Shown here piece after piece: positions 33,736-46,171 of a DNA stretch of 64,000 nucleotides. The position numbers and the translations under genes are program-made. The DNA lies in assembly GCA_037178675.1 (NCBI GenBank), contig JAYMGJ010000161.1, positions 31,622-95,621 of the forward strand, written 5' to 3'. Every line of letters starts with the position of its first letter. Positions within the stretch are counted from its first letter, which is position 1. The notes below the pieces were generated by a model. The model was not told where the DNA came from. It made no database searches and saw only the letters and a program-made list of their open reading frames with translations. This DNA is from Scleroderma bovista (lineage: Eukaryota; Basidiomycota; Agaricomycetes; Boletales; Sclerodermataceae).

Positions 33736-35416
33736 TCACCTGGTAGGTACGCTCATAACTCCGCTTTCGAATATGTGAGGCACACCTACATAATTGCTGG
33801 GGAATATCCCCTTCTTTCTGTCAATCGAATACCCTAAATTTGTAGCAGACATCCAGACTGTCTCAAAAGTCCTCCAAGTCCTGCTCACCTTCCCACCAGG
33901 CCTCTGCATAGTTCTGGCCACCGCATGGACCTGAAGAAAGCTCAAGCACCTCACCTTCGACAATAGTCAGTTCGTGTGGCCCTTGCGCTTGGTAATCAAA
34001 CAACACTCGTGCTAGACTCCACTGTAAACCGAGGGAATAGCCTTAAGCGAAGCGAATCAGCTCACCAAACTGGCCATTAGATGTCGCGGATCCCTGTCCT
34101 AGTATACCCTTCATTTCCGAGAGATCTGAAGACCCTGCTTCGGAGATGGCGAGGTACGAAGCCGGGACAAACCCCTTCCCACCATGGTCATCTACAACCT
34201 TTACCCAGCCAGAGCCACCGTCTTCTTCGAGCACATGTACGGTTGCCCCTTCTGTAAATTCGTGGGAACGTGGCCATTTCAATGATCCCATGCCACGAAC
34301 CGGAAATACTCAGCTCGAACGACGAAGTCGCGAAGAAATCATACATCATAACGGCTGAGGAAAGTGGCTCTTCCACAAGCATTTCATTCTCACGCGCAGG
34401 AGCTTCTATAATGCCATCGACACATGGCTCTGCGCAGTGGTGTATGTGCCGTCGGGAAGAATTCAACTAATTTACTCACGAGTGATCTGAGATGGAGTTA
34501 ACCTAGGGGACTCCATTGTTGCAGCCTTGTAATCACCGGGGGACCCAGTACATTCCGCTGGGAGCTATGTTGGAGTTGGAACGGAATGATGCAAGATCAG
34601 AGTGTGATCGAGTTCCCACCTTTAACTCGCATTGTGTATGGACAGACAAACGACACGCTTTACATGTTTTGCCTAACTTTCGCAACCCCCAAATAGAAAA
34701 CTGATCAAGAAACGATGAGTGGCTGTTCGGACTTGAGTGGTCGGAATGTCACACCCACACCACAATAACTACATGTAATTGCAACTGGAAACGAGGAGCT
34801 CTTGAATGAGTGTGGTGTCGAGCCGCCTTCATCGTCTGTACAGACGTCAATTTTGGGCAAGCGGCGCTACCCAGAACGCACCTCCCATGGCGGCGATAAT
34901 AACATCTATCTCTGACTGGAAGGCCAGTATCGATGTCGCTACCAGCATTTCTAGCTTCTTAGCGTCTAGATAACACTAAGACAATCAAAGGGGTTCAAAA
35001 ACAACCCAAGCGCCCCTACATTGATAGCATCATCAACGCTCCCAAGGGTAGTTTCAATGGACCGTGCCGAGACAAGCTCGATATATCTCTCGACTTCGAT
35101 GCCTTTCACACCCTAGTGTCAAGCCACTGATAACCCTGGAATACACTTACGTTTTGCACAAAGAACCGTCTCCGCTTTTTGCAGCTTCGTACGAGATTGC
35201 AAAAGCATGTTTTGCAAGCATACTTTGGGCGTGTGCTCCAAACTCATTTCACCCTAGGACGAGTGCCACAGATGATAATCCGGATGCGTCCGAGAGAGTA
35301 AGAACGCACAGCATCATAACAAGTTGCATGTCCCTCGAAAGCAAAGTCATCCGACACGCTGAATGGTTTGGCGGTAAAATCGAAGAATAAGCTTTGGTCC
35401 TTAATAGGTTGTACGT

Positions 35417-35424
35417 CGTCCAAC
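35417..35424. repeat. Left target-site duplication of the hAT element
   Basis: CGTCCAAC immediately precedes the first base of the element. It is identical to 36876-36883. Eight bases is the hallmark length for hAT transposition. Confidence 0.92.
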
Positions 35425-36875
35425 TAGGGAACCGCACGGGTACGGGTAACACCGCGGTTTTCTGTAAACGGGTTCTGCGGGTACGGGTGCGGTGTAGATT
35501 AGCTGTACCCGTGCATATACCGTACCCTTTTACCGCGGGTTGACGGTGTTTGGCGGGTTTCTCGGGCCACAACTTGGAGCCATTTGTAATCACTGCAACC
35601 AACTTCAAATGGAGTTACCGCTGCTTCCTGATACTTCCTATATACTACTGTCGTTGACTGGCAGTAATGTGAATCATGGAGAATCGCAACCCACCGTTCA
35701 ATGTATCGAGCGAAGTTGTTGTTATCTCCGTGGACGTGGCAGCTCTCCTTGAATCAAGTGAAGTATAAAGGGTTTGTTGGATTGGAAGAAGGTCAGTACA
35801 CTCGTCGTGCAGAAATGCCCACTATCAAAATTAAGCCTCTTGCCAAAAAAACCTCTGATGCTAGTACACCCTCTATATCTCGTGTATCATCGACTCAATC
35901 TGTTGATCTGACTCTATTCTCGGAGTCGGAACTCAATGAGGCGTCAACCCAAGGCCCATCGGATTCCAGCAGTGGCACCCCTCAAAGTGACAAAGTGGAC
36001 TCCACAGTCACTGACCTTGGTAAGTCAAAATCGTTATCATACTCGGATTGAAACAGCCGAGGAACTGGTTTACATGGAGTTTAACAACAAATACAAGAAG
36101 GACGTGCCTGACACAGAGCTTGATGGCGGCACGCTAACAACCACTGTGGACTTGGTGTGTACTACTACAGTGCTCTACTAATCTATTACAACGCTCAACG
36201 CTCATGATATTGTCTTGCAAGGATGATGACTTCGGTGATTATGCTCTTGGTAGTACCTCATCTGCCTCAACCATTAGTGAGCTGGATGAGTACCTTCGTC
36301 TCCCCACTGTTAAGACCAACGACCCACTTGCATGGTGGCAAGACAACTGCTGCACATACCCCATGCTGCACCAGATGGCCCTCGACTTCCTATCTGTCCC
36401 AGGTTGGTACTTCATTCATATTTGACTTGATCTGCCAGGGGCTCATTACTCCACAGCAACATCAACGGCTGTAGAACGTGTCTTTTCACAAGGGCGTCAA
36501 CTCCTTCACTTCACCCATAACCGGCTGTCCCCATCTACTATCCATGCATATCTTTGCCTTGGTGCTTGGGGAAGGTGCAACCTGCTTTTCGAAGACCTTT
36601 TGGCAGCCGTTACAAGCCGGAAACGCAGGCAGAGTGAGAGGGAAACTGAGGATATAGAGTAAATAGAATGGTGTATTGTTATTTACGACCTCAAGCAGAG
36701 TATCTTGGGGTAACCCGTACATAGAACCCGCGGTGTTCAGAGCTACCGCGGTGTCAGCGGTGACACCGTCATGTCCACGGGTCGGTGTATACCCATACCC
36801 GGTACGGGTACGGTGTGTGCGGGTACGGGTACGGTACTCAAATTTTGGCTTACGGTGTTACCCGTGCGGAACCCT
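35425..36875 (+). mobile_element. hAT DNA transposon, internally deleted, 1,451 bp
   Basis: The left end is TAGGGAACCGCACGGGTA and the reverse complement of the right end is TAGGGTTCCGCACGGGTA, so the terminal inverted repeats match at 16 of 18 positions and continue toward AACACCG after one extra CGGGTA unit on the left. Both ends carry several CGGGTA/GGTACG subterminal repeats, the sort of sites bound by hAT transposases. A perfect 8-bp duplication (CGTCCAAC) flanks it. The interior keeps only the C-terminal part of a transposase, so the copy is non-autonomous. It sits in the F-BAR exon of BZZ1, and its transposase fragment lies on the strand opposite to that gene. The exact duplication suggests a recent insertion. 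Confidence 0.92.
35701..36662 (+). pseudogene. hAT transposase C-terminal fragment (dimerisation domain)
   Basis: The recognisable part is ELDEYLRLPTVK, LAWWQDNC, YPMLHQMALDFLSVP, then after a short intron-like gap ATSTAVERVFSQGRQLLHF, NRLSPSTIHAYLCLGAW and a stop at 36660-36662. This is the hAT family C-terminal dimerisation region. Upstream is a Ser/Thr-rich stretch (MPTIKIKPLAKKTSDAST). The BED zinc finger and most of the RNase H-like catalytic core expected of a full transposase are absent, consistent with the small element size. A transposase made elsewhere would be needed for movement. Confidence 0.82.
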
Positions 36876-36883
36876 ACGTCCAA
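36876..36883. repeat. Right target-site duplication of the hAT element
   Basis: CGTCCAAC follows the last base of the element and matches 35417-35424 exactly. One copy is original BZZ1 coding sequence. Confidence 0.92.
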
Positions 36884-38089
36884 CGCCATGCTTATGAGGG
36901 CTAGCTGATCCTTGGAGACATCGTGATGCATTATTTGTGCGGCTTGTGCTTGTTTCAATATGGTCACACAATCCTCAACAAGGCGAGTTTGCAGGTCCTC
37001 TAAATGACCATGTGAATGCCATATGAGAAACAACAATGTACTAACTGTAGATCTGGAATTGAACAATAAACGTATCCTTCGGGACAATTAATAACGGAGG
37101 ATTTGTACCCACATTTTCGAAGTTGGGAATGTCTTCCTTATAAAATTTAACCTTGATGCGGTTGGCAACCGCAATGGCTACCACGTACATGCTTGAGATG
37201 CACTTTGAGCTCTTGTGCAGAACGATCGATTTGACTGACTTTTTGCTCGCTAGCATGTCGCTTCTCTTTTGTTCATATTCTCTCACGGCTGGGTCTGAGC
37301 TTCGATCCTGCAATGAACACGATCCTGGTAGACCGACCTTGGGAAACAAAGCAACTTCGTTACCTTTTTCTGGCAGCTCTCGACTTTGGCGCAATCATCG
37401 TGGTACTGAGAGACGTGATTTCTAGCAAAACGACAGGGGCCATTACCTGACAAACCTTCCGCTTTTTCTGTTGGAATCAAATCATCATCCTCTGTTTGAA
37501 AGGAGCAGGGGAGAGCTGACTGTCGTGCAGTCTTGGTAATAGTGATCCCGTTCCGATAGTAGTTTCTGATAAAATTGTGTTTGCTTTGGAAAGATACTAA
37601 GCGACCGCGCCTCAGGCAACACAGTTGGGTGTACCTTTTTCTTTTGGTCCTCACCCCGACGTCCCAGCGCCCCAAGAGGCTCAACGATTTCTGAGGCAAG
37701 CCTGTTGGCGAGAGCAACGTGGTCCTGGGCTGTGCGAGACAATGCGGACGTTAGCTGAACAAATGCGTGGTTGAGTGTTCTAGTGTGATCCTATTTTAAG
37801 ACAAATGGTGGATCGAGCAGCTGGACATGGACGGACTTCTGCTTGATGGTGTTTTCCGTGTTGCTCCCGACCACGAGTGGCGCAACTGCCTTGAGTCTTT
37901 TCTCGGTAACCTTCCTAGCAAGCAGCTCAAGTTTTGTGGCATATTCACGTTCCAGCGCTGCCCTGTCGCAGTAGAAGTCGCGGAGCTGAGGAGATCGACA
38001 GCAGTATGACCATGATCCACGTTCACGAGGGTTGTGCGTACATCGGCAACCCACCCGAGATGCGCATCAAAAACGCTGTCCACCTGGAC

Positions 38090-38685
38090 CTGCAAGCCCG
38101 TACGAAAACAACGTCGATGGGGGCTTGGCGTTACCAGGAGACTTTGGCCGTGTTTTACCAGCTGTTCCATTCTCACCTTGCTTCAAGTTTGAAAGCAGGG
38201 GTTGTTATGGTCACCAACAGTCATTGTGTGCTCGGTAAGTGCTTATTACTCTGCCAAGTTCCAAACGACACAATAGGTGTATTGTAATACGTAGTGAAAG
38301 CGGCAGAATTTCCTGCGGCGGCCCTCTCCTCCGAGGGTCACCCTGGCCGTCGACTTCATCGCGGGTGAAGAACCAATCCGGCCACAAGGCATGTGACCCA
38401 TCTTATTGCCACACAGCCGCACTTGCCCCTTGCAATATCCGCGTGTCTTTGTTCCCTTTGACTCCGTCCGCCCCGGGGCTAATGGCCGAAGGCTGGTATT
38501 ATGTACTCCCGTTTGTTTGACGTCTCACCGCAGCTCAATTATCGCAATCGGCATGTGCTTCCCGCCAGGCAGACATTTCCGCGTATAAAAGACACACCAA
38601 AATCCGTCTTCAGATGGCGCACTGTCCACATCCCGTTCCCCCCACTCCCATACCCTGCACGTGTCCAACCCCTGTATCTCTCACA
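38090..38685. other. Divergent promoter region between BZZ1 and the secreted protein gene
   Basis: The BZZ1 first exon probably lies near 38.09-38.25 kb but could not be fixed. The right side contains GCGTATAAAAGAC at 38,581-38,593, a good TATA box about 100 bases before the ATG at 38686, followed by a CT-rich leader typical of strongly expressed fungal genes. Confidence 0.55.
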
Positions 38686-39222
38686 ATGTATCAGTTCACA
38701 ACCATCCTCACTACCTTGTGTGCACTCTTTTTGTCCACCCTCGCAGCGCCTCTGCCTGCAGACGCGTCTGTACCACACAAACGTTGGAACCACACAGGCC
38801 GGGTGAGTGTAACCTCCAGTTCCGTCGATCCCTCCAACTGACACCATTCACAAGGGCACTTATTACTATCCAGGGTATGGTGCATGTGGGTACACGAACG
38901 GCAACAATGACCCTGTCGTCGCAATGAGCGTTCAAAGCTTCAACACTGGTTGGTGTGGTCAGGTAAGGGTAGATATCTCAGCCTCTTCCAACGAAGACTG
39001 AGGTTTCCTTATAGTGGGTGTACATCTACAACCCTGCAAACGGCAAAGGTGCCTCCGCACAAATAGTCGATGCATGTGAATCTTGCGATACCAACAGTTT
39101 GGGTGTGTTACTTTCTTTCATCATTCTCCCAGCTCTCATCCGATCTACTTCCAGACATGTCACCTGGCATCTTTCAGCAACTCGCTCCGTTGTCCGAGGG
39201 CGTCATCCAAATAGAATGGTAG
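38686..39222 (+). CDS. Small secreted RlpA-like double-psi beta-barrel protein
   Basis: Four exons (38686-38802, 38855-38962, 39015-39102, 39155-39222) give 126 residues. The start MYQFTTILTTLCALFLSTLA is a clear signal peptide with cleavage after AAPLPA or nearby. The mature part has GTYYYPGYGACGYTN, DPVVAMSVQSFN, CGQWVYIYNP, AQIVDACESCDTNSLDMSPG and ends LSEGVIQIEW. This is the six-stranded double-psi barrel found in barwin-like and expansin-like proteins. Members are secreted, bind carbohydrate or inhibit proteases, and in plant-associated fungi some are effectors; none of these is demonstrable here. Cysteines (CG, WCGQ, DACESC) allow two disulfides. A TATAAAA box and CT-rich leader precede the start. 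Confidence 0.9.
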
Positions 39223-42695: not shown

Positions 42696-45600
42696 TCAGA
42701 AATTATCAACAGGATTCTCAACCTCCATGCATCCATGAAGTATGTTATAGATCTCTTTATCTGCAAAATGATTGAGGAAAAAGCAGTCAAATAACTCTTG
42801 AGATGTCACAGACGTTATGGTGGCAGGCACGTTATCACTGCCAAACACCAGGACAAGTTCCACTGCATGTGACACCCAGCTAATGGGGATAATCAGGCCC
42901 TCCCTTGTAGTCTGTCCAGCCTCTGCACGGAGAATGTTCCTCTCCACTATCCACATCTGCAATTCTGGCTGCTGGTCTGGGGTGCTAACAACATGGAAAG
43001 GTTGTACATAGACGAGTGGTTTGTCAAGATATGGAGGGACTTGCAGTCTGGAACATGAAGGTGTGCAAGGCTGGAATACGGTGCGCACTTATGCCACATA
43101 ACTTGCACCTGCGTGTGCAATATATTAGTACACGATCAGAACATAAGCCAGGATTGCATACCATTATTAGGGGGGCTGATTAAAACAGCATCGCAGTGTC
43201 CATAAGGGAAGTCTTGCGAAGGAGCTCTCACTTGAATGGCCTGACTCGGCATGACCTTAGAAGAGCAGAAAGTGGGCTGCAGCTGAACACGGAATTTGTA
43301 CCACAGAGCGATGCAGTTGAAAGCGAGAGAGTGGGTACCATGGGAGTGCAACCAGAGGAATTCCATGTAGCGAGTTTCAAAGTCAGGAAGGCAATACTGC
43401 ACAGCAATATCATTCAGCGACAAATTGACTTCATCTGGACGTGTCGTGACGTGGAGAGCGGTTTGTGTGTTATTAGCAAGCATGCCAGTGATGAAGTAGT
43501 TGCGGACTGGACGGGGACCTTGGACTTGCCATTGCTCTTCAGGCAAGACACGTGCAACCCATGCAAGCGTTGGGTCCATTGTAGTTGCTTCCTCCTCCTC
43601 CGCGCAAATGGTGTTGATAAGTGGTATATTACCGGAACGTAGCAACGTGTAGATGTCGAACTGCCACATAGCTTCTTCGCGATCAAGGATTTGGACAATT
43701 TGTTCTGCGAAGTCTTTATTTTTGCTGGTGCGCTTGAATGGGTGTTTGCAGTGAGTCATTAGTAAACGTTCACTAACATCTGCAGTATGATATATTAGCG
43801 CACCGCTATTATGAACTGCCGTTGTGAAGCTCTGAAAGAGCTCTAATTTTGGGATATAGAAGTCAGTTTTGGTGCCAGCCGCTTTTGTCTTTCTGGCCCC
43901 CGCTGAAAAGATAACAATGTGCTTGGGTGGCTGCTCCCTCAGATGAGGTGCATTCGACCCAGGGACTTCTGGAGGTCTGGCAAGGCTCCCAAGGACTAAG
44001 GAGACTAAGAAACTAGAGAGTGGAAGGGTGGTTCAGTCACTCCAAGACTGAGCTCAAAGATATACACTGAAGAGAAGGATCTTGCTTAGTAAGCTAAGTA
44101 CAAGCCTACATAGCTAAGGTAAGAGTCCAGTATCAGTACTACCAATCTACACACCCAGAGACAGGACTGTCTCTACACCACCTCGATAATTGCATCCTTG
44201 TGGTCATGAAATTCACGTAGCGAGGACTCCATTGCCTTGATGGAAGCATCCATGTACACAGGGCTCTGTGCCTGGTAGATAAAATCAACAAGAGCGCGTA
44301 TGGCGTGGAGGAATCGTGGGGGAACGCGGCCAGCAATCATGGCGACAATCGTACATTGGATATCGCAGTGTTCTCTGCCTGTCATCTGTTTGACATGCGA
44401 AATGCCACCCGCAAAGTGCCTTGTCCCAGTGCGTTTATGATGACACTTGAACCACGCGTCAAGTTCAGCACCGAGTAACTCTTTGCACCACGGGAGGATG
44501 TGGTTGAAGAAGAATTTATGGCACGCATGAAGAATTTCAGGTAGAAGGAAAATGGATGGGTCCATGAATCGCCAGTTTCTCCAAAATGGAAAGTGGATAC
44601 CGCTAAGGTACAGTGCTTTCGCAAATTTTAGGAAGTGGGGCAGGTTCCATGGGTCGGCCTTCTCCAAGGCTTGGCTGATGCGCTTGAGTGTGAGCTTGCC
44701 TGCACGAGGCAAATGATGGTGAGCATCACCGAACTGCTTGTGAGTTGCCTCCGTGACGGGGGAAGCACTCTTTGAAACACATGCGAGCATTTGTTGTTCA
44801 GGGAGGTTGGCAGTCCATGCCACTAGTGGTGTAAAACAGTGCCATAGGTATCCATGGGGATCCGACATGAAGGATCCAGTCTGTGCAATGTGTTTCAAGC
44901 CCACAGTGACAATGTCAGTGCATCTGTGCCAGATCCGAGTCTGCAGGATTGTCTGGTGTGCCTTGGGGGCGTCAAACTTTGGTATTGGCATGAATGCAAC
45001 ACATCGCCATGCATGTGAGGTGGCCGACATGTGAATACGCCCTGGAATATTGCTGATGCTGATGAAGAGGGGGTGCATTTCTAGTCCTCCTGTCATCCTT
45101 GTCACGGGAGTCTTGTCGGATGCTGCAAGAACAGGTATGATTGTTGCTCCCTCTGGAAGGGAGTCCTAACAGCCAGATATCTATTTTTCAGTTCCATGTG
45201 GAGGTGCAGCTCCCAATGGACATACCTGGATATGATGAGCTTCATGCGCCAAAAACCATTCACTATACTCCTGTCCAAGTGGTGACCTGATTTCGATAGG
45301 GTCAAATGCCATGTTGGCACCAAAAATAGGGTCCCCAAACAAGGACCTTACAACTTCCTCCGTGTCGCGCCAAATCAATTGTATGGGACTGACTGTTTTG
45401 TAACCCTTCACTTCTAGGATGGTACTCTGCCACTTCGGCCCTGCAGGAAGAGTATCCATCCATCTGAGTAGCTGCTCCGCGGAAGTAAAGGATGGTCCTG
45501 GATTATCATGAAACTATCACATTGGTCAATGAAATGTGCGATAATTGAGAAAATAAAAAAAAGAATACCCAAGGAAAAGCAAGGAACTTGTTGATCTGAG

Positions 45601-46027
45601 CTTGCGTGAGGTTATCAACGAGAAACTTGGCTAAAGACCACTCTGCTCGGGATCGAAATGGATAGTACAGGTTGATCTCTTGCTCTTGTTTAAAGGGGCC
45701 ACTATTCATTTTCTCGAATGTATTGGGTTCACGACCGAAGGTATACCCCGATCGTTCATGGTACTTAGCTCTTGAGTTCGATCGTCCATATGAAGGTGGA
45801 TGAGAATCTTGAGTTGTCAACGAAGGCCACGAGAAAGATGAATGACATGAATTAATATGCTGGATCAACACATCGTGGGTCTCGAAGGGCACTTGGCAAG
45901 TTGGACACCAATACCTGGAACTCGACCGGTAAGTAAAACCTTCAATCAGCATCGTCGATACAAACCCTCCAGGATTGGGGACTTCATAAATATAAGCCTG
46001 CTCGGGTGGTATGCTCTCTGTCTCCAT
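42696..46027 (-). CDS. Plavaka-type transposase
   Basis: The start METESIPPEQAYIYEVPNP leads to a C2H2 finger (CPTC ... HINSCH). It is followed by NLYYPFRSRAEWSLAKFL, IQLIWRDTEEVVRSL, the long block with GRIHMSATSHAWRCVAFMPIPKF, PEILHACHKFFF, KRTGTRHFAGGISHVKQMTG, FIYQAQSPVYMDASI, then IPKLELFQSFTTAVHNSGAL and ADVSERLLMTHCKHPF. The end has YVQPFHVV, WVSHAVELVLVFG and TSQELFDCFFLNHFADKE. These are blocks I know from Plavaka proteins, a CACTA-related DNA transposon group common in Agaricomycetes. Between 43905 and 44172 the frame is lost: a stop follows EVV, and KTKAAG resumes about 265 bases later with no phase-consistent intron. The copy may thus be defective. Terminal repeats were not identified. 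Confidence 0.82.
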
Positions 46028-46171
46028 CGTAAATGTTGACCTCTGGCCTCCGTGATGAGTCCGTGGCTGAAGGAATAGACAAAATTTGTCTAAGTGCTTC
46101 AAACTCCGACAAGCCTGCGCTCTCCACCCCCCCCCCAAGTATCAGTCACAGATTGAGGAATGTCACTTACA

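What the first reader, a model, noticed from the sequence alone, without database searches (positions are those of the whole stretch)
35417..36883. hAT element inserted in the F-BAR exon of BZZ1 with a perfect 8-bp duplication
The element borders are base-precise: TAGGG-type inverted repeats and CGTCCAAC on both sides. The BZZ1 reading frame on each side of the insertion is continuous (MALDV before, PIKDQSLFFDF after), and the C1 and both SH3 domains downstream remain open. This looks like a recent, possibly polymorphic knockout of a conserved endocytic/actin adaptor, or one haplotype of a dikaryon.
Basis: seen in the sequence. Interest (0 to 1): 0.8.

Follow-up and report, generated by a model that had tools for sequence, protein, structure and literature searches.

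The report
Defective hAT transposon disrupts fungal BZZ1
In this mushroom-forming fungus (probably close to Scleroderma) a crippled jumping gene has recently landed inside the only BZZ1 gene found, which helps cells take up material, and has probably switched it off; it is a clean example of an ordinary kind of event.

Summary
Observation confirmed. A 1,452-bp element (35425-36876) has an exact 8-bp duplication on both sides and 16/18-bp inverted repeats. It is a non-autonomous hAT: spliced, it would encode a 229-aa transposase stub with the whole dimerisation domain but without the middle part that a 3,441-bp relative on contig C513 carries. Two more damaged copies are in the assembly.

The host gene, antisense to the element, is the only BZZ1 found in the genome. 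Apart from the insert it reads as a 644-aa frame with 19 GT-AG introns and no disablement; of simulated neutral copies 1 of 18 stayed clean at 1% divergence and 0 of 18 at 2%. So the gene was constrained until recently.

Most likely this is a recent loss of function: read-through stops 44 residues after leaving the BZZ1 frame, inside the F-BAR and before C1 and SH3. Polymorphism or a second nucleus cannot be tested here.

An unforeseen rival: the borders form an in-frame GT...AG pair, so the element could be spliced out as reported for maize Ds1; at 1,454 nt and with a weak branch site this is unlikely. A new member of a known kind.

The parts
35417..35424 (.). left copy of the 8-bp target-site duplication (CGTCCAAC)
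   Evidence: identical to 36877-36884
35425..36876 (+). non-autonomous hAT element, 1,452 bp
   Evidence: inverted ends, duplication, other copies, full-length relative
35425..35442 (+). left terminal inverted repeat
   Evidence: I2, 16/18 complementary
36859..36876 (-). right terminal inverted repeat
   Evidence: I2
35815..36019 (+). putative transposase stub exon 1 (MPTIKIKPLAKK..., N-terminal segment)
   Evidence: no Pfam hit alone; similar by eye to the N-terminus of the C513 transposase
36057..36154 (+). putative transposase stub exon 2 (AEELVYMEFNNKY...)
   Evidence: splice ends read, inferred
36222..36402 (+). putative transposase stub exon 3, first half of the hAT dimerisation region
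   Evidence: C161:67900-68022; 55% aa identity to C513 over 56 aa
36457..36662 (+). putative transposase stub exon 4, second half of the hAT dimerisation region and stop
   Evidence: PF05699 below cut-off alone; PF05699 5.8e-19 over the spliced 229 aa; 52% over 67 aa
36877..36884 (.). right copy of the 8-bp target-site duplication
36877..38170 (-). BZZ1 5' part: start codon to insertion, 9 introns, codons 1-256
33736..35424 (-). BZZ1 3' part: end of F-BAR, C1, two SH3 domains, stop; 10 introns
35424..36877 (-). potential 1,454-nt GT-AG intron formed by the element plus one base of each duplication (GTAGGG...CCCTAG); splicing not shown

Best explanation
A non-autonomous, internally deleted hAT transposon inserted, by cut-and-paste carried out by a transposase made elsewhere in the genome, into the F-BAR-coding part of the BZZ1 gene of a Scleroderma-like Boletales fungus. 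Staggered cutting of the target duplicated 8 bp. The element lies antisense to BZZ1, so BZZ1 transcription runs into it: translation leaves the BZZ1 frame after codon 256 and stops after 44 further residues inside the element, losing the end of the F-BAR domain, the C1 domain and both SH3 domains. The allele is therefore most likely a recent loss-of-function allele. Shown here: element, borders, duplication, missing middle part, otherwise intact host gene. Inferred: trans-mobilisation, loss of function, recency in time.
For: Exact duplication and 16/18 TIR; other copies sharing the borders; PF05699 5.8e-19 over the spliced stub; 3,441-bp relative with duplication GCAGCGAC whose ends match at 73-77% and whose last two exons match at 52-55% aa; BZZ1 domains FCH 4.2e-9, C1 1.2e-10, two SH3; 644-aa frame, 19 of 19 introns GT-AG; splice-aware alignment with 0 frameshifts and 0 stops, against 1 of 18 clean simulations at 1% neutral divergence and 0 of 18 each at 2, 5 and 10%; no second BZZ1 found; read-through stop.
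Against: No transcript or read data. The element borders make an in-frame GT-AG pair, so function may survive by splicing. The constraint seen in BZZ1 would also fit an older insertion that is spliced, or an insertion in one nucleus only. With a first set of costs the alignment reported 2 frameshifts and 1 stop, which vanish only when introns and gaps are made cheaper.
Confidence: 0.85

Rival explanations
1. The insertion is tolerated because the element is spliced out of BZZ1 mRNA like an intron: the last base of the first duplication plus TAGGG gives GTAGGG, and CCCTA plus the first base of the second gives CCCTAG. Removal of 1,454 nt adds only two codons (LD) in frame.
For: The splice-aware alignment chose this junction as a GT-AG intron in both settings; the product is in frame; GTAGGG is also the donor of native intron 12 of this gene; maize Ds1, a hAT, is spliced from exons (titles in the reference list of PMC3260210); TSD/TIR introners that add codons are described (PMC9860276); host frame fully constrained.
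Against: The alignment choice follows from the border letters and from a lower charge for GT-AG than for other gaps, and is no evidence of splicing. Native introns here are 44-109 nt, this one 1,454. The CTAAT branch-like site near the end is followed first by CGCAG and TTTACAG, and an in-frame product that keeps the element's end meets TAG (letters, reasoning by hand). Border Gs arise by chance in about 1 of 16 insertions per orientation (by hand).
Confidence: 0.08
2. BZZ1 was already a decaying relic before the element came.
For: The window BZZ1 has a long branch: 0.72 against 0.095 for Hydnomerulius, while one control gene of the same window gives 0.378 against 0.12, about 2.4 times more acceleration.
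Against: No stop, frameshift or broken splice site in 1,932 coding bases; expected number at 2% neutral divergence about 5.6, and 0 of 18 simulations at 2% were clean. Relaxed constraint is possible, death before insertion is not supported.
Confidence: 0.05
3. Only one nucleus or some isolates carry the insertion; the fungus as a whole keeps BZZ1 function. (Does not exclude the best explanation, which concerns this allele.)
For: Mushroom hAT elements transpose in monokaryons and give mosaic insertions (Marasmius oreades, PMC9674265, passages). The intact frame fits.
Against: Only one version of the flanks was found in the assembly; this does not distinguish a monokaryon from a collapsed dikaryon.
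Confidence: 0.3
4. Assembly artefact.
For: No reads could be checked.
Against: A misjoin would not make an exact 8-bp duplication at base-precise ends shared with other copies; the insert differs from each other copy found.
Confidence: 0.02

Closest known systems
MarorhAT-4/-11/-12 with autonomous MarorhAT-10 (Marasmius oreades, PMC9674265, passages seen)
   Same: Non-autonomous mushroom hAT elements that share ends with a 3,396-bp autonomous element and lack its internal part; insertions that defined the autonomous element hold a hAT C-terminal dimerisation region
   Different: Those are 597-631 bp and were seen moving; the present 1,452-bp element still carries a putative stub with the whole dimerisation domain, and movement was not observed
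Ac/Ds of maize, Ds-del and Ds1 (PMC3260210, passages seen; abstract start)
   Same: hAT, 8-bp duplication, deletion derivatives; Ds1 reported as spliced from exons (reference titles only)
   Different: Different TIR; splicing untested here
scooter of Schizophyllum commune (recalled; no paper read)
   Same: Small hAT-like element disrupting genes in a mushroom (recalled)
   Different: Different species, element and genes
TSD/TIR introners (PMC9860276, passages seen)
   Same: Transposon ends and duplications supply splice sites, sometimes adding codons
   Different: Introners are families found repeatedly as introns; here one coincidental case without RNA evidence. The ascomycete introners in that paper lack TSDs and TIRs

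Membership tests
hAT superfamily | 8-bp target-site duplication | tested here: met
   relative on C513 has GCAGCGAC on both sides
hAT superfamily | short terminal inverted repeats | tested here: met
   16/18
hAT superfamily | C-terminal dimerisation region in the encoded protein | tested here: met
   PF05699 E 5.8e-19, positions 1-83 of 84, on the spliced model; the unspliced last exon alone scores 20.1 bits, under the cut-off of 21.4
hAT superfamily (autonomous member) | BED zinc finger and RNase H-like catalytic domain | tested here: not met
   the 229-aa stub has only PF05699; compared with C513, the stretch between N-terminus and dimerisation part is missing. Pfam gave no BED or catalytic name for the C513 pieces tested either, so those two names rest on reading by eye
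non-autonomous deletion derivative | shares ends with a longer coding relative | tested here: met
   left end 73% over 140 positions, right end 77% over 88
non-autonomous deletion derivative | mobilised in trans | not testable with these tools
   needs excision or transposition assay
BZZ1 (F-BAR, C1, SH3-SH3) | FCH, C1 and two SH3 domains in order | tested here: met
BZZ1 | groups with Boletales orthologues | tested here: met
   tree of 10 rows, 5-row clade at 100/100; only BZZ1 locus found
introner / spliced transposon | in-frame splice sites at the element borders | tested here: met
introner / spliced transposon | actual splicing in transcripts | not testable with these tools
   no RNA data
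introner / spliced transposon | repeated occurrence of the family as introns | not tested
   only three family copies recognised; the sites of the other two were not annotated

The most novel reading that the evidence does not exclude
The hAT insertion is a nascent intron caught at birth: duplication-derived G bases on both sides turn TA...TA ends into GT...AG, so a 1.45-kb transposon can sit in an exon of a single-copy endocytic gene without abolishing it. Because an 8-bp duplication leaves 6 nt after such splicing, any hAT insertion with a G-flanked duplication and such ends would be frame-neutral.
Probability: 0.07. Interest if true: 0.6.

Novelty: new member of a known kind. Interest (0 to 1): 0.27.

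Why it matters
As it stands it is a clean example, with an upper limit on its age, of a hAT element breaking a conserved gene in what appears to be an ectomycorrhizal lineage, with a full-length relative in the same genome that could be the mobiliser. If the element is spliced, it would show a simple, general rule by which hAT insertions in exons become frame-neutral introns. The accelerated BZZ1, and the lack of rows named Pisolithus or Scleroderma among the BZZ1 hits listed, hint at a lineage in which this endocytic adaptor is becoming dispensable.

Tried and rejected
At first sight BZZ1 looked full of stops and frameshifts; each could be placed in an intron with GT-AG ends. A first splice-aware alignment still reported two frameshifts and one stop. 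With cheaper introns and gaps and dearer frameshifts and stops they vanished. This depends on alignment settings, so the simulation control was run with the same settings. Intron 7 differs between the model (37363-37308; 37384-37338); both are GT-AG and leave the frame open. Introns 9, 11 and 17 also have in-frame alternatives by eye.

F-BAR loci on C385 and C4 were examined as possible second BZZ1 copies and rejected by eye: C4 has a long linker and one SH3-like end in the ORFs listed, and C385 looks like an F-BAR/RhoGAP-type protein. No Pfam scan was run on them. A search with the Hydnomerulius BZZ1 finds 6 matches, 5 on C161 and one SH3-region match on C583.

The 7-kb interval in copy C264 was considered as the missing internal part of an autonomous element. 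No hAT exon was recognised by eye there and it holds a mariner-like ORF, so it was taken as a nested insertion. C410 was considered as an autonomous copy: it is the left 202 bp of this family broken by a different hAT.

The idea that this kind of end systematically makes introns was not supported. Of 7 duplications seen or inferred (window, C264, C410, C513, and three related elements, one of them with one mismatch), only the window's begins and ends with G, counting both orientations (by hand). One search looked at 30 loci of the TIR scan; 25 gave no bounded element. The TIR scan itself gave 51 forward and 48 reverse matches at up to 3 mismatches against 28 and 20 for the reversed control pattern, so the weak matches say little.

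The literature searches showed no report of this insertion in the listings seen: BZZ1; hAT in basidiomycetes and Boletales; Scleroderma, Pisolithus; introners. Passages were seen of PMC9860276, PMC9674265, PMC3260210 and PMC10066745; of all others only the listing.

Full report
WHERE. The window is C161:31622-95621 of a 51.8-Mb, 850-contig assembly. BZZ1 proteins of Hydnomerulius and Paxillus are the best hits of the host gene (51% each). A control gene of the window, a PUL/thioredoxin protein at about 21.6-23.3 kb, is closest to Scleroderma citrinum (70%) and groups with it in a tree of 13 rows (100/99). The organism is therefore taken as a Boletales fungus close to Scleroderma. This is an inference from proteins; no name is given by the tools.

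THE ELEMENT. CGTCCAAC stands at 35417-35424 and 36877-36884. Between them lie 1,452 bp with inverted ends matching at 16 of 18 bases. A whole-genome DNA search gave 11 matches. They include the window copy; three pieces on C264, 672 bp at 97% and an alignment of 688 at 93% on either side of a nested ~7-kb block, plus 76 bp at 97%; and C410, where 206 bp of the left end match at 99% before a different hAT interrupts. The remaining six are short matches, some to relatives. C410 starts at the same base as the window copy; C264 ends at the same base.

CODING. On its + strand the element holds four putative exons. Spliced, they give 229 aa with the hAT dimerisation region complete (PF05699, 5.8e-19, profile 1-83 of 84). 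Exon borders are inferred from GT-AG ends; one of the introns would be only 37 nt. On C513 a 3,441-bp relative is bounded by GCAGCGAC duplications. Its ends match the window element at 73% (left, 140 positions) and 77% (right, 88 positions), and its last two exons match at 55% (56 aa) and 52% (67 aa). Between its N-terminal and dimerisation parts it has long frames that the window element lacks. The window element is thus a deletion derivative, comparable to MarorhAT-4 versus MarorhAT-10 in Marasmius (PMC9674265, passages) or Ds-del versus Ac. C513 was not shown to be active, and Pfam did not name a catalytic or BED domain in the pieces of it that were tested.

THE HOST GENE. On the minus strand, ATG at 38170 to stop at 33738-33736, a model with 19 introns (44-109 nt, 19 of 19 GT-AG) gives 644 aa when the empty site is considered. 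Pfam finds FCH, C1 and two SH3 domains. It is the only BZZ1 locus found in the genome. The insertion follows codon 256 plus one base, residue 272 of the Hydnomerulius protein, in which residues 62-302 align to the Cip4 structure 2efk. It therefore lies inside the F-BAR, about 30 residues before the end of that match.

IS THE GENE OTHERWISE INTACT? With one set of costs the splice-aware alignment reported 2 frameshifts and 1 stop. With other costs (cheaper introns and gaps, dearer frameshifts and stops) it gave 0 and 0, with 20 introns, the element counted as one. With the same settings, copies of the region mutated at random (indels at 10% of substitutions) were clean in 1 of 18 cases at 1%, and in 0 of 18 at each of 2%, 5% and 10%. 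An analytic estimate gives a chance of 0.06 at 1% and 0.004 at 2%. BZZ1 was therefore under constraint until about 1-2% neutral divergence ago at most. The match to C410 (2 mismatches in 206, one of them in the flanking bases, by eye) fits a young family, though on little sequence; C264 is more distant.

RATE. The window BZZ1 branch is 0.72 changes per site against 0.095 for Hydnomerulius. In the control gene the corresponding path is 0.378 against 0.12. BZZ1 is thus faster than the lineage's own rate by about 2.4 times, based on one control gene. No row named Scleroderma or Pisolithus is among the 60 hits to the window protein or the 120 listed of 313 hits to the Hydnomerulius protein (14 listed rows are unnamed; weaker hits were not listed). 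Their control-gene proteins are present (1 and 3 rows of the 120 listed of 318). These searches score only the candidates sharing most words, and only proteins of 0.55-1.75 times the query length. This is a lead towards relaxed constraint or loss in Sclerodermatineae, not a demonstration.

CONSEQUENCE. Reading through the insertion gives ...ISMALD followed by 44 residues and a stop. C1 and both SH3 domains are lost. From established knowledge of yeast Bzz1 (recalled), the SH3 domains bind the WASP homologue, so the fragment should not do the protein's work. Loss of bzz1 is tolerated in yeasts (recalled), so such an allele can survive.

THE UNEXPECTED RIVAL. In the BZZ1 sense the duplication is GTTGGACG and the element begins TAGGG and ends CCCTA. 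The borders thus read GTTGGAC|GTAGGG...CCCTAG|TTGGACG, a GT-AG pair that leaves two codons (LD) in frame. The alignment program picked it in both settings, but only because of those letters and because it charges less for GT-AG than for other gaps. Ds1 of maize is reported as spliced (titles in the references of PMC3260210), and introners with duplications are known (PMC9860276, passages). Against it: 1,454 nt among introns of 44-109 nt, a weak branch site near the terminal acceptor, better acceptors upstream that leave an in-frame TAG (by hand), and a chance of about 1 in 16 for such borders in a given orientation.

VERDICT. A real, recent, probably disabling insertion of a non-autonomous hAT element in the only BZZ1 found; an ordinary kind of event, well resolved. 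Knockout, polymorphism and splicing all need RNA or population data.

Noticed in passing
window 43136-46141: Plavaka-type transposase (PF18759, 2.6e-62) with a DUF6830 ORF and a zinc-finger-like ORF beside it.
   Followed up: partly
window 35815-36662: The element's putative stub protein keeps the dimerisation domain without the catalytic part; such stubs could in principle act as repressors of the full transposase (inference).
   Followed up: no
window 33736-38170: BZZ1 evolves about 2.4 times faster than one control gene relative to Hydnomerulius, and no row named Pisolithus or Scleroderma was seen among the BZZ1 hits listed.
   Followed up: partly
G000 C264:35653-44035 (L012): Sister copy with a nested ~7-kb block holding a 289-aa mariner-like ORF (label by eye); its left end seems to have lost about 18 bp, perhaps between GGG repeats; right flank AATGGGAC.
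   Followed up: partly
G000 C513:41477-44917 (L015, L082): 3,441-bp hAT relative with intact 8-bp duplication and long transposase frames; candidate mobiliser.
   Followed up: partly
window 38686-39222: Small, probably secreted protein gene head to head with BZZ1, barwin/expansin-like by eye; Pfam gave no hit for the two ORF pieces tested.
   Followed up: partly
G000, genome-wide: 81 matches to the hAT dimerisation family, among them two sets of five with equal scores, so hAT elements are numerous and some may have multiplied recently.
   Followed up: no
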